Shown here in pieces: positions 36,901 to 39,858 of a stretch of DNA of 64,000 bases. The stretch lies in contig JALGQZ010000009.1 in the NCBI GenBank assembly GCA_023105745.1, positions 32,974,409 through 33,038,408 of the forward strand. The letters are read 5' to 3'. The position numbers were made by a program, and so were the translations under genes. Numbering within the stretch: the stretch's first letter is position 1; the number at the start of each line of letters is the position of its first letter. Source of the DNA: Austropuccinia psidii. Its lineage: Eukaryota > Basidiomycota > Pucciniomycetes > Pucciniales > Sphaerophragmiaceae. The notes below the pieces were generated by a model, which was not told the origin of the DNA, did not search any database, and worked only from the letters and a program-made list of their open reading frames with translations.

Positions 36901-39648
36901 ATCAATTTCATGTCCCCTTATAGCGCCTAATGGTTCATTATCAGATGCAAATGCATTATTGTATGTATATAATACATCAATAAGTCCATTCCTCATCTTT
37001 GGTGACAATGATGGATTAATTTGTGCTTCAACAAGTTGTTTAGACACAAATTCATCTTTGTAAGTATCTCTGACAGAAGATACTACAGATATCTGTTTTG
37101 GCATATTGGAGAAAGCAAATTTTTGCCTTTTGTTATCTCCAATTGTGAAATATCTGTCTTTATGGTTATTTATATCAATACCATAAATATTCAAGTAATC
37201 ATATCCAAGAATGATATGCTGAGATGTACAATTATCCATTACTACAATCTCAGTTTTCATTCTTACACTTCCTGCTGGATGTGGGAATACAATATTAGTA
37301 TCCAATATGCCCAAGGGGTACATATTGTTACTGGCACTACTGAACTGTACACCTTCTATTGGTAATAGATGGTTTTTCCATTCAGGAAGTATAATTTGAA
37401 GATAATCTTTGCCAATACAAGTGCAAAATGCCCCTGTATCCAGATTCACTTTGGCTTCAATATCACTCATTAGAACTGATGTGATACAGGATGCTCCAGC
37501 AGTATAACCCTTTCCTCTAGCAGGTTTTGTTTTACACATTCTGGCATCTTGGATATTGATCAGGTTGTAGCAATCCTCACTGTACTGTGGCAAGTGGGTA
37601 TGGACTTCTGTGACCTCAAAGAAAGCTGAAATGTTTTCAATGGGATAGTCCTCTACTGGTGTATCTTCAGAGACTGCAGAATCTTGATCAGACTCTTCTT
37701 TCTCTTCAGTACACTGAATGTCTTCAATGATTTGAACTTCATTGATCTTTGTCTTCTTAGGGCAAGTGTTGGCTAAATGTGAAGTACTTCCACATTTATG
37801 ACACTTCAAGACAGGTCTTTCTGGTCTTCTTTCTTCTCTAGGAATCTTTGAGACTATTTTGGACTCTATTGGGTTTCTAACCCAAGTTTTACCAATTCTT
37901 GTTCTGGTAATGATATCTTCCATAGCATTAATGTAGTCCTCTGTTGAACAGGGTTCCACACATCTGCTTTTGATAGCATGTTCCAGTTCTCCTCCACATT
38001 TTCTTAATATTTTCATATTAATCATAGTGTCAGACATATCTGGGTGTAAAGCAGATAATCTGTCTTTTTGTTTGAAGAACCAAGTAAGTGGTTTGTCTTT
38101 TTCTGAGTTAAAAATGGCACTTTCAAAAGCATTCTCCATTTTAAACCTCCAAGAATTATTGGCCCATTTGGTAATCACTTCAGATTTCCACCAAGACCAG
38201 TCATGTCTTCCATGATCCATTCTCATCTTGTAATACCATTTCTTTGCAGTCTTGGTAAACAAACAATGTAATTTTCCTACTATGATTTCATCAGGTATAT
38301 TAAAGTCTTCTTGCAACATATCAATAGTCCTGATGAATTCAATATGGTTGTATTCTCCTTCACCAGAGAATGTTGGCCATTCTTCTAATTTGGGAATATC
38401 CTTTGCAGAAATAACATTCTCTCCTAAGAATGGAGTCAAACTTTCTTTGACAGAAAGTTTTTCTTCAGTCAAAGGTGTAGAATGTCTTGGCATATGTGGT
38501 TCATGATTCTTATGAATTTGCTCCACACTTGCAATTATTTCATTCTTCAATTTCTGCCTTTCACTGTCACTTTTTGCTAAATGTATAGCAAATTGATTGG
38601 TGTTCTTAACTATTTGTAAGACATGGTCTTCAAGAGTTTTAAGTCTATCATTTACTTTAAAGATGGAAAGATCCTCTGTGTCATTATTTTGACATTGGTT
38701 CTCAATTCTTTCACAAGCATTGCTAATTGACTCAAGGGTGACAGTTGTCAATTTATGCCAATCAGAATGTTGCTTGTCATTTTTCTTTAAATCATTGATG
38801 TCTAATGTAATTTGCTTCAACTTTGACTCAAGTTTGCCAATTTCTACACTAATACTTCTATGTACATCATTTATTTGCGTGGAAAAGTCCTGTTCATCCT
38901 TTCCTGCTCTTTGGCTGTGAATTCCATAAGAGTTCTGGCCATATTGAAGACACTGTCCACGGCTGAAGGCTCCAATCTGGGGATCCTGTACCCTTGTGGG
39001 TAAGGTCTGTGCCAATTGGCTTTGCCTTTGCCCTTGCCTTGATGGTTCTTGGGACCTCTCTGTTTCTTTTGAGGTCCTTTGGGCTTGTCCTTGGATGCTT
39101 CTGGAGCTGGTTTGGAGCTGGTAGATGCCACTGGTGCCTCTGTCTCCAAAGTTGGAGTCATTTCCAATTCTTTCTTCTGGTCTATGGATAAAAGACTCTG
39201 GTTCTTCAACCAATTCTTTATCTTTTTGACCTTGTCTTTGCAAGACAGGGGGCTCCAACCTCCTAAGAGTTCTATGGTCTTCTCCTGACCCAGAAAGCTC
39301 TTGATGTGTAAGTAGGAGTTCATGGCCCCCTGCCAAAGGCTTGGGCAGATTTCCCACTCCTCTTCTTTGGCTGCTCTGAACCAATTTTTGTACTGGCTCT
39401 GATATATCTCTATTGCTGCCACTTGAAAATGGTTCAGCCCTGGAAATATTATCATAAATTAGTTCAGGCTCAGAATTCACGTCAAAATCTGTTGGTACAG
39501 ACCTTGGGGAATGGGGGGCAACTCTGGCATCCTCCAGATGTGCCTTTCTTGTGGAAGATTTGGCACTTCTGGATTTGGTCTTGCCTCTTCCTTGTCCACA
39601 TCCATATGGTTGGACTGAATAGTTGCTTCCATTTCTGGTATGCACCAT
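33946..39648 (-). CDS. gag-pol: B1 Gag-Pol polyprotein, intact
   Basis: 1900 residues from ATG 39648 (MVHTRNGSNYS) to TGA at 33946. The N-terminal 260 residues are disordered and overlap the accessory frame. A coiled-coil region follows, then Gag core EWPTFSGEGEYNHIEFI, zinc knuckle CHKCGSTSHLANTC (about 614), protease NLDTGAFCTCIG (about 735), RT catalytic YIDD (about 1083, at 36388-36399), RNase H (YIDACGDGLGAAL, NADGLSRW), integrase zinc region HLSEDRTLEK...CDRCQ (about 1470), DDE blocks (MDWVTALP, SDRDPKF, ERMIQTLED) and a chromodomain-like end YLVRYRNPVHEDEWMAES. Chromodomains in this clade bind modified histones and steer integration. Gag and Pol form one frame with no programmed shift. 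The start lies inside the predicted intron at 39635-39699. Confidence 0.95.
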   Translation of the reverse strand: MVHTRNGSNYSVQPYGCGQGRGKTKSRSAKSSTRKAHLEDARVAPHSPRSVPTDFDVNSEPELIYDNISRAEPFSSGSNRDISEPVQKLVQSSQRRGVGNLPKPLAGGHELLLTHQELSGSGEDHRTLRRLEPPVLQRQGQKDKELVEEPESFIHRPEERIGNDSNFGDRGTSGIYQLQTSSRSIQGQAQRTSKETERSQEPSRQGQRQSQLAQTLPTRVQDPQIGAFSRGQCLQYGQNSYGIHSQRAGKDEQDFSTQINDVHRSISVEIGKLESKLKQITLDINDLKKNDKQHSDWHKLTTVTLESISNACERIENQCQNNDTEDLSIFKVNDRLKTLEDHVLQIVKNTNQFAIHLAKSDSERQKLKNEIIASVEQIHKNHEPHMPRHSTPLTEEKLSVKESLTPFLGENVISAKDIPKLEEWPTFSGEGEYNHIEFIRTIDMLQEDFNIPDEIIVGKLHCLFTKTAKKWYYKMRMDHGRHDWSWWKSEVITKWANNSWRFKMENAFESAIFNSEKDKPLTWFFKQKDRLSALHPDMSDTMINMKILRKCGGELEHAIKSRCVEPCSTEDYINAMEDIITRTRIGKTWVRNPIESKIVSKIPREERRPERPVLKCHKCGSTSHLANTCPKKTKINEVQIIEDIQCTEEKEESDQDSAVSEDTPVEDYPIENISAFFEVTEVHTHLPQYSEDCYNLINIQDARMCKTKPARGKGYTAGASCITSVLMSDIEAKVNLDTGAFCTCIGKDYLQIILPEWKNHLLPIEGVQFSSASNNMYPLGILDTNIVFPHPAGSVRMKTEIVVMDNCTSQHIILGYDYLNIYGIDINNHKDRYFTIGDNKRQKFAFSNMPKQISVVSSVRDTYKDEFVSKQLVEAQINPSLSPKMRNGLIDVLYTYNNAFASDNEPLGAIRGHEIDITLNIDRPYPPVLRRPAYPASPRAREALEKHIQELIQLGVLRKVGHNEEVEVTTHVIIAWHNDKSRMVGDFRALNTYTVPDRYPIPRIQETLTQLSKAKYITSMDALKGFHQNVLTPKARKLLRIITHCGIYEYLRMPFGIKNAPSHYQRMMNTIFPTELSEGWLIIYIDDIIICSDSWSLHLERLARVLHKVAEVNMKISLKKCNFGFEELKALGHVVSGLSLGIDKNKVAAVLLKPIPQNKKEMMSFLGFASYYRQHLKDFAILAKSLYRICDQQTVFEMTQERIKAYEKIKKALTEAPLLLMPDWNIPFKLYIDACGDGLGAALHQVQIIDDKPTEGPVCYISRQIKPTEARYGASQMECLCLVWALEKLHYYLDGSVFEVITDCNAVKSLLNMKTPNRHMLRWQIAIQEYRGNMTIVHKAGNIHKNADGLSRWALANTPDNPAYVPLEAEPQIPIEGINITDIGTEFFEEVRESYKQDKNCHILTSLLDKDCKDTSLVNTLDEVWKNSYSEGRFHLFDGIIYHRTKHSCVMTLCSRLLINTILHECHDSIYSGHLSEDRTLEKVKNCAWWPSWRKETIEYCHTCDRCQKANRSTGKKFGLMIHIQEPKSPWEVVHMDWVTALPPSGDKSYNACLVIVDRYSKTPIFLPCHKDDTAMDTALLLWSRVISHTGLFKNIISDRDPKFTSALWTNLHRLFGTKLSFSTAYHPQTDGLAERMIQTLEDMIRRFCAYGLEFKDSDGFTHDWCTLIPALELAYKTSVHSSTGQTPAMLEKGWNPRLPADTLRKDLIDIHPTASSFKLMLDKVKHHAKQSMDDAFDYAKQKWDKSHKVPDFKVGDLVLVSTLNFNNIKGPKKLKDSYVGPFVIVALHGTNAVQVELSGELENKHPTFPVSLIKPYQPADKELFPLRNPTPLTVPPVEQNEDRKIKKVIKERRLRGKNQREYLVRYRNPVHEDEWMAESEIPDSDKLLRRFRHERRPQA

Positions 39649-39858
39649 TTTCACGTCAATTTAAAGATAAAAGGTGAAAATATAAGATAAAATACACACC
39701 TTTTGGTGGTAATTTACCTTTTTCTGAGTTGAATAAGGTGCCTCTTTTAGCAATCTGCACCTCAATACTGTCTTCAGATTCTGCTTCTGAAGATTCTGGA
39801 CTAGTGATATATCTTTTACTGAGTCTGTTGCCAGCTGCACAGTATTTGATTAAAGACA
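38871..39858 (-). CDS. Predicted spliced accessory protein of B1, overlapping Gag
   Basis: Exons 39858-39700, 39634-39503 and 39439-38871 on the minus strand. With one upstream base they total 861 nt, exactly 287 codons including the stop. All stops in this frame lie in the two predicted introns. The first exon opens with TG, so an upstream A gives ATG and SLIKYCAAGNRL. Exon two begins EMEATIQSNHMDVDKEE. Exon three holds KNWFRAAKEEEWEICPSLW, LGGWSPLSCKDKVKKIKNW, a Pro/Ala/Lys linker and a terminal helix-like SVFNMARTLMEFTAKEQERM. It differs little from the B2 version, and the four-codon length difference between them is in phase. The function is not known. It has more W, F and Y than the overlapping Gag frame, which suggests this frame encodes the folded product. 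Confidence 0.6.
39440..39502 (-). other. B1 predicted intron 2 (63 bp)
   Basis: Donor CAAG/GTCTGT, branch-like TACCAAC, acceptor TTTCCAG/GG. It removes the stops of the accessory frame and keeps phase. It is 63 bp, a multiple of three, so Gag reads through it unspliced. No counterpart is seen in family A. Confidence 0.55.
39635..39699 (-). other. B1 predicted intron 1 (65 bp) holding the gag start
   Basis: Donor AAAAG/GTGTGT, branch-like AATTGACGT, acceptor ATACCAG/AA. It contains the gag ATG at 39648, 52 nt from the donor. Conserved in B2 (63 bp) and B3 (65 bp). Confidence 0.55.

What the first reader, a model, noticed from the sequence alone, without database searches (positions are those of the whole stretch)
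38871..39858. The same overprinted spliced frame in family B, open in B1 and still open in dead B2
In B1 (three exons, 287 codons) and B2 (283 codons) every stop of the alternative frame falls in two short predicted introns of 63-65 bp. The exon sums are exact multiples of three in both. B2 has at least six stops in gag-pol yet none in this frame. B3 keeps the same sites in decayed form. A repeat across families A and B argues against chance.
Basis: partly seen in the sequence, partly recalled or inferred. Interest (0 to 1): 0.9.

Follow-up and report, generated by a model that had tools for sequence, protein, structure and literature searches.

The report
Gag DNA hides a second gene
In a jumping gene of a likely rust-fungus genome, the DNA coding for the start of its shell protein also carries, in a second reading frame, another protein that natural selection has kept and that is predicted to be made only after the RNA is spliced, so one stretch of RNA would serve as two genes.

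Summary
B1 is a young Ty3/Gypsy element, probably in Austropuccinia psidii. The second frame is real and under selection. In 35 copies, changes shared by 10 or more copies are mostly silent in the second frame in exon 1 (p=8e-5) and exon 3 (p=4e-11), but inside predicted intron 2 they lean to silent in Gag instead (p=0.009). The constrained frame therefore switches where splicing is predicted; exon 2 alone shows nothing. Two second-frame stops in intron 2 are in 33 and 34 of 35 copies, while no exon stop is in more than 6. Gag stays open over the overlap (0 of 68 shared second-frame-silent changes make a Gag stop, against 14 of 102 singletons), though its amino acids drift there. Gag constraint alone does not explain the open frame. 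The argument from dead B2 fails: its Gag frame is equally open there. Family A shares the layout: donor ACAA|GTAAGT, acceptor AG|TG (joining would build an AUG), and a first intron holding Gag's AUG. Splicing is untested (no RNA data). Most likely role, inferred: a regulator of unspliced RNA like Rev or CERV. Closest known: CERV of worm element Cer1. A new variant of a known kind.

The parts
40350..42269 (-). 5' LTR of B1
   Evidence: 99.69% identical over 1920 bp to the copy at 31884-33803
31884..33803 (-). 3' LTR of B1
33946..39648 (-). Gag-Pol open frame of B1, ATG 39648 to stop 33948-33946
   Evidence: no stop inside; RT, RNase H and integrase matches above Pfam cut-offs
39859..40873 (-). 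predicted leader intron, donor ACAA|GTAAGT in the LTR, acceptor TTTTAG|TG; joining would form AUG from A+TG
   Evidence: sequence; donor is a 95% identity island between 73% and 81% flanks, base before GT is A in 25 of 25 copies with a letter, but GT itself intact in only 18 of 30; a second candidate donor at 40689 also ends in A in B1
39700..39858 (-). exon 1 of the second frame (outside Gag)
   Evidence: second-frame constraint, singles 19/86 against shared 11/5 silent/changing, p=7.8e-5; the other two frames p=0.76 and 0.19
39635..39699 (-). predicted intron 1, contains the Gag start codon 39648
   Evidence: GT and AG kept in 33 and 34 of 35 copies; variable middle, conserved ends
39503..39634 (-). 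exon 2 of the second frame, overlaps Gag
   Evidence: open in B1 and B2; no constraint shown for it alone in any frame
39440..39502 (-). predicted intron 2, coding only in the Gag frame
   Evidence: second-frame stops in 33 and 34 of 35 copies; Gag frame constrained here, singles 5/37 against shared 5/4, p=0.009; no gap in any of 35 copies
38871..39439 (-). exon 3 of the second frame, overlaps Gag, stop 38873-38871
   Evidence: second-frame constraint, singles 81/309 against shared 38/21, p=4.2e-11; Gag frame p=0.41
42791..43764 (+). B2 copy: exons 42791-42949, 43013-43144, 43208-43764
   Evidence: alignment; no stop in the second frame or in Gag over the overlap
60240..61225 (+). B3 copy, decayed
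   Evidence: as L042
21869..22417 (+). family A predicted leader intron, donor TTACAA|GTAAGT, acceptor TTCAG|TG
22418..22717 (+). family A exon 1
   Evidence: similar peptide in Austropuccinia psidii MF-1 proteins
22718..22785 (+). family A predicted intron 1 (68 nt), contains Gag ATG 22766
   Evidence: 7 of 12 MF-1 proteins read join the flanking exons at this point
22786..23486 (+). family A exon 2, overlaps Gag, stop 23484-23486
   Evidence: 0 stops against 4.38 expected with Gag held (P=0.0058, 5000 runs)

Best explanation
The stretch is the 5' coding part of a Ty3/Gypsy retrotransposon in which the DNA for the start of Gag also carries, in the +1 frame, a second protein-coding frame that selection has kept and that is predicted to be read only from a spliced RNA. 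Shown: both frames are open beyond chance; the second frame is amino-acid constrained in exons 1 and 3; Gag is constrained inside intron 2 and kept open across the overlap; the first intron holds Gag's start codon. Inferred: RNA from the LTR is either left unspliced, giving Gag-Pol from the AUG inside intron 1 and serving as the genome, or loses the leader intron and introns 1 and 2; then an AUG would form across the leader junction (A|TG), Gag's AUG would be gone and the 286-residue protein would be made. In B1 (not in A) the leader intron would also take out the presumed primer binding site, so the spliced RNA would be messenger only. Most likely role (inferred, about 0.35): a regulator that lets the intron-bearing genomic RNA escape splicing and leave the nucleus, as Rev does for HIV (recalled) and CERV for Cer1. 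The confidence below is for double coding plus splicing, not for the role.
For: Simulations: with Gag held, second-frame openness P=0.0014 in B1 and 0.0058 in A; with the second protein held, 17.9 and 15.3 Gag stops expected, 0 seen, 0 of 5000 runs each. Constraint flips frames at splice sites: exon 1 and exon 3 second frame, intron 2 Gag. Gag kept open: 0 of 68 against 14 of 102, p=0.0009. Ancestral stops in the second frame in intron 2 (33 and 34 of 35 copies; intron 1: 18, 25 and 32), exon stops in at most 6. Splice dinucleotides kept in 32-34 of 35 copies for introns 1 and 2. Same donor end, acceptor, intron phase, Gag AUG position and +1 offset in family A. 82 of 240 listed MF-1 proteins (120 from each query) carry the joined exon 2/3 peptide.
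Against: No RNA or peptide evidence. Exon 2 alone shows no constraint; transversions alone are not significant (p=0.11); without the differences that part B1 from nearly all copies p is 0.053 (4+ copies) or 7.6e-6 (10+). All stop-creating changes together are not clearly depleted among changes shared by 4+ copies (second frame 4 of 112 against 26 of 473 singletons; Gag 6 of 112 against 36 of 473). The one old family A pair is flat over the overlap (27/18/26 at Gag positions 1/2/3), so selection in A rests on openness and protein similarity only. The B donor is unsettled. No intron-free copy among 35. The two proteins show no sequence homology.
Confidence: 0.75

Rival explanations
1. The second frame is open only because Gag's amino acids happen to avoid stops there.
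For: Gag over the overlap is rich in Q, S and G (84 of 258 residues).
Against: P=0.0014 by codon resampling; shared changes in exon 3 are silent in the second frame, not in Gag; exon 1 lies outside Gag and is constrained.
Confidence: 0.03
2. Only the second frame codes; the Gag extension over it is never translated and Gag-Pol starts downstream of 38871.
For: Gag shows no amino-acid constraint in exons 2 and 3 (p=0.65).
Against: Gag-stop changes avoided, 17.9 stops expected and none seen, Gag constraint inside intron 2, Gag ATG kept in 32 of 35 copies.
Confidence: 0.1
3. The second frame is translated without the full splicing, for example from the ATG in exon 2 or with frameshifts past intron 2.
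For: 79 of 240 listed MF-1 proteins start at the exon 2 methionine.
Against: Exon 1 is constrained in the same frame and family A has no early exon 2 ATG; the frame switches exactly at GT-AG sites.
Confidence: 0.08
4. Same double gene, other role: the second protein is an RNA-binding or particle component, or acts against host silencing, not an export regulator.
For: A lysine-rich stretch (net +8 in 30 residues) fits any RNA binder, and no export signal lies next to it by a simple pattern.
Against: A protein made only from RNA that has lost its introns fits a regulator of the intron-bearing RNA better (inference).
Confidence: 0.45

Closest known systems
CERV of Cer1, a Caenorhabditis elegans Ty3/Gypsy element (PMC10309623; abstract and passages read)
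   Same: Gypsy element; protein from a spliced RNA; one exon overlaps gag in another frame; Gag-Pol is made from the unspliced RNA.
   Different: CERV exons 1-3 share gag's frame and a long last exon lies after pol; here exons 2 and 3 both lie in the +1 frame inside Gag and the frame ends there. CERV's role in RNA export is shown; here it is inferred. Sequence similarity was not compared.
Rev/Rex and Tat/Tax of complex retroviruses (recalled)
   Same: Small regulators from spliced RNA of the same transcript that makes Gag-Pol.
   Different: Placed near env, not over gag; no sequence link was sought beyond Pfam and PDB searches.
P4 (ORF IV) of rice tungro bacilliform virus (PMC5902531; passages read)
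   Same: Splicing from a leader donor gives the start of a downstream frame.
   Different: A leader uORF is fused to a separate distal ORF; no overlap with the coat protein frame is described in those passages.
BARE spliced gag RNA in barley (PMC3735527; search listing with start of abstract only)
   Same: A single-ORF LTR element with distinct RNA pools.
   Different: No second frame is mentioned in what I saw.

Membership tests
Ty3/Gypsy LTR retrotransposon | paired LTRs | tested here: met
   1920 bp at 99.69%
Ty3/Gypsy LTR retrotransposon | RT, then RNase H, then integrase in Pol | tested here: met
   RVT_1 979-1134, RNase H 1199-1330, integrase zinc domain 1458-1512, rve 1529-1628, all above cut-off; chromodomain match below cut-off
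CERV/Rev-type regulator | encoded by a frame other than gag's, overlapping it | tested here: met
CERV/Rev-type regulator | made from spliced RNA | not testable with these tools
   only splice-site and selection evidence; no RNA data
CERV/Rev-type regulator | nuclear localisation and export signals | tested here: inconclusive
   simple patterns only: lysine-rich KKQR stretch in B; RRR and RRK in A; one NES-like match in B and three overlapping in A, none beside the basic part
CERV/Rev-type regulator | needed for export of unspliced RNA | not testable with these tools
   needs an experiment
CERV/Rev-type regulator | sequence homology to CERV | not tested
   CERV sequence was not fetched

The most novel reading that the evidence does not exclude
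A splice-switched double gene: one RNA stretch is Gag when intron 1 is kept and a Rev-like regulator when it is removed, with the regulator's start codon built by joining A to TG across the leader junction and Gag's own start codon thrown out with the intron. Two related element families in one rust genome carry it, which would make it a Rev-type feedback switch in fungal LTR elements.
Probability: 0.33. Interest if true: 0.82.

Novelty: new variant of a known kind. Interest (0 to 1): 0.64.

Why it matters
It shows a conserved overprinted gene in fungal retrotransposons that automatic annotation has scattered as hundreds of 'hypothetical proteins'. Many decayed copies in one genome give an unusually clean test of double coding, because changes seen in a single copy serve as the neutral yardstick. 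If the switch works as inferred, it would make the question of how fungal elements get intron-bearing genomic RNA out of the nucleus directly testable.

Tried and rejected

Led nowhere: Pfam gave nothing for the second frame above cut-off (windows' exon 3 of B, the A frame, and P0001, P0057, P0028, P0067). Structure models of two MF-1 relatives (P0002, P0123) had mean pLDDT 48.0 and 38.7, so no fold search was made. PDB sequence search: best E 0.0014 to an isopropylmalate synthase for B and 0.45 for A, taken as chance. Spliced retrocopies: the leader-junction pattern gave 7 places, all with 2 mismatches (reversed control: 1); 3 are unspliced B copies and 4 unrelated sequence. The patterns for introns 1 and 2 did not complete. 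The 30 near-identical copies are the best hits of their own query, so they carry no test of selection. Diverse family A copies could not be fetched (on).
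Full report
What the place is. The window is AT-rich (GC 0.245 to 0.423 per 2 kb) and lies in a genome of 1,015,390,075 bases in 84 contigs. The best 120 protein relatives listed for each of the two second-frame proteins are all from Austropuccinia psidii MF-1, so the host is very likely that rust or a close relative. The genome paper (PMC8063080, passages) reports just over 1 Gb, over 90% transposable elements, mostly Gypsy. B1 runs on the minus strand from LTR 42269-40350 to LTR 33803-31884, 99.69% identical over 1920 bp. Its Gag-Pol is one open frame, ATG 39648 to the stop at 33946, with RT, RNase H and integrase and a chromodomain match below cut-off.

The observation. 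Reading the +1 frame relative to Gag and leaving out 39699-39635 (65 nt) and 39502-39440 (63 nt) gives an open frame from 39858 to the stop at 38873-38871. The exons are 159, 132 and 569 nt, 860 in all, so one base is missing at the start. Right upstream is a pyrimidine-rich acceptor, TTTTAG|TG. The LTR holds a donor ACAA|GTAAGT at 40873. Joining them gives ACA-ATG, a start codon built across the junction, and 286 codons. Family A does the same with donor TTACAA|GTAAGT (21869) and acceptor TTCAG|TG (22418), 333 codons. In both, the reading frame upstream of the donor is closed by a stop with no in-frame ATG. In both, the first intron sits at the same codon phase and holds the Gag start codon close before its AG (ATG 39648 in B1, 22766 in A). 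In B1 a second donor, TTA|GTGAGT at 40689, would also give A|TG. The conserved island is at 40873 (identity 0.95 between 0.73 and 0.81), where the base before GT is A in 25 of 25 copies with a letter; but of 30 copies GT itself is intact in 18 (7 changed, 2 gapped, 3 not covered), against 24 of 30 at 40689. The B donor and the transcription start are therefore unsettled.

More than chance? Holding B1's Gag protein and resampling codons from the rest of gag-pol gives 5.06 second-frame stops over exons 2+3, and none in 0.14% of 5000 runs; holding the exon 3 second-frame protein gives 17.9 Gag-frame stops, and none in 0 of 5000 runs. Family A gives 4.38 stops (0.58% open) and 15.3 stops (0 of 5000). 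Neither frame explains the openness of the other.

Which frame is under selection? Among B1, B2 and B3 the differences in exon 3 gather at the third position of the second frame (B1-B2 22/3/8 at Gag positions 1/2/3), whereas in Gag-only sequence further down they gather at Gag position 3 (5/8/27). For a larger test I used 35 copies: B1, B2, three from a near-miss pattern search (L039-L041, which biases their acceptor) and the 30 loci returned (of 40 places listed) from a search with B3, one of them B3 itself (L042-L071). Most copies are decayed, so a change seen in one copy is mostly neutral decay, while a change shared by many copies mostly arose before insertion and was filtered. Singletons are spread nearly evenly over positions (exon 3: 147/114/129); changes shared by 4 or more copies are not (44/17/18; Gag-only far region 19/18/42).

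With 10 or more copies as shared, the ratio of silent to changing differences moves strongly in the second frame over exons 2+3 (singles 102/371, shared 41/27, p=4e-10), not in Gag (113/360, 14/54, p=0.65) nor in the third frame (88/385, 6/62, p=0.058, the other way). It moves in exon 1 in the second frame only (19/86, 11/5, p=7.8e-5; other frames p=0.76 and 0.19), and in the Gag-only control in Gag only (61/251, 35/17, p=1.7e-11; other frames 0.34). Inside intron 2 it is Gag that is constrained (5/37, 5/4, p=0.009), not the second frame (14/28, 3/6, p=1). The constrained frame thus changes where splicing is predicted.

Limits. Exon 2 alone shows nothing in any frame. Transversions alone are not significant (p=0.11 in the overlap). 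Taking out the differences that part B1 from nearly all others leaves p=0.053 (4 or more copies) or 7.6e-6 (10 or more). Stop-creating changes taken together are not clearly depleted among changes shared by 4 or more copies (second frame 4 of 112 against 26 of 473 singletons; Gag 6 of 112 against 36 of 473). Copies share ancestry, so the p values are not exact probabilities. In family A the only pair compared is one old copy in the window (73% identity); over its part of the overlap the differences are flat (27/18/26 at Gag positions 1/2/3 in 273 sites, against 61/54/111 in 946 Gag-only sites, whose printed frame label was off by one and is re-read here with ATG 22766). Selection on the A frame therefore rests on openness and on similar MF-1 proteins (68-79% identity over 22 relatives to the first row).

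Gag in the overlap is open but free. Changes silent in the second frame that make a Gag stop are 14 of 102 among singletons and 0 of 68 among changes shared by 3 or more copies (p=0.0009; at 2 or more copies 5 of 99, p=0.052). Stops per 100 codons are 0.78 (exon 1), 0.93 (exons 2+3), 1.06 (Gag over the overlap), 1.04 (Gag after it), 4.78 (third frame), 7.27 (second frame beyond its stop) and 10.0 (second frame inside intron 2). In intron 2 two second-frame stops are in 33 and 34 of 35 copies; in intron 1 three are in 18, 25 and 32; in the exons none is in more than 6. Splice dinucleotides are kept in 33, 34, 33 and 32 of 35 copies (introns 1 and 2), the leader acceptor AG in 29, the TG after it in 30, the Gag ATG in 32. 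The simplest history is that the second frame is the more important sequence here, with Gag running over it as a flexible stretch (inference).

How it most likely works. The intron-bearing full RNA would be genome and Gag-Pol messenger; the spliced RNA could not make Gag, because its AUG is cut out. In B1 it would also lack the stretch after the LTR where the primer site is expected (placed by position and recall, not tested); in family A the donor lies after that stretch, so this point does not hold there. Complex retroviruses (recalled) and Cer1 follow such a logic: the CERV protein of Cer1, made from a spliced RNA with one exon in a frame other than gag's, is needed for export of unspliced RNA (PMC10309623, abstract and passages). 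The B protein has predicted helices in a low-confidence model of a relative and a lysine-rich stretch (net +8 in 30 residues); family A has basic clusters before a short hydrophobic end. I favour a regulator of unspliced RNA, at about 0.35; other roles are open. The splicing, the built AUG and the role are inferred.

Novelty. Searches for rust or fungal Gypsy elements, overlapping or overprinted frames, spliced accessory proteins, subgenomic RNA and start codons made by splicing listed no report of this gene; the library holds only open-licence papers, and I read listings for most. One rust transposon paper searched within (PMC12210899) has no mention of gag, introns or splicing. Matching 'hypothetical proteins' are in databases (515 of 792 candidates at E up to 0.001; 693 of 1689 at E up to 10; 120 of each listed). 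Of the 240 listed, 82 carry the joined exon 2/3 peptide and 79 start at the exon 2 methionine; 7 of 12 family A proteins read join exons 1 and 2 as predicted here. Whether RNA supported those gene models is unknown to me.

Noticed in passing
window 38871-39858; genome-wide: At least 40 places match B1's 988 bases at about 100% (only 40 of 2286 first-look candidates scored), which with 99.69% LTR identity points to a very recent burst.
   Followed up: partly
window 40225-40349: The stretch with TTTGGGGGCCTGGCCGTG after the LTR occurs twice in B1; of the 30 near-identical copies fetched (B1 among them), 16 align only from about 40258 or below and seem to lack the extra copy.
   Followed up: no
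window 38540-38870: Gag just after the second frame's stop is the fastest changing coding part (B1-B2 identity 0.78 against 0.91 further down and 0.94 in exon 3).
   Followed up: no
window 39646-39660 and 22762-22768: If the leader is spliced but intron 1 kept, the new frame ends a few bases before Gag's AUG in both families (TGA then AUG), as if set for re-initiation.
   Followed up: no
proteins P0057, P0058, P0060, P0096: Some MF-1 models fuse the second frame to downstream Gag and carry a precomputed label PF27605; the Pfam scan of P0057 did not reproduce it (the other three not scanned).
   Followed up: partly
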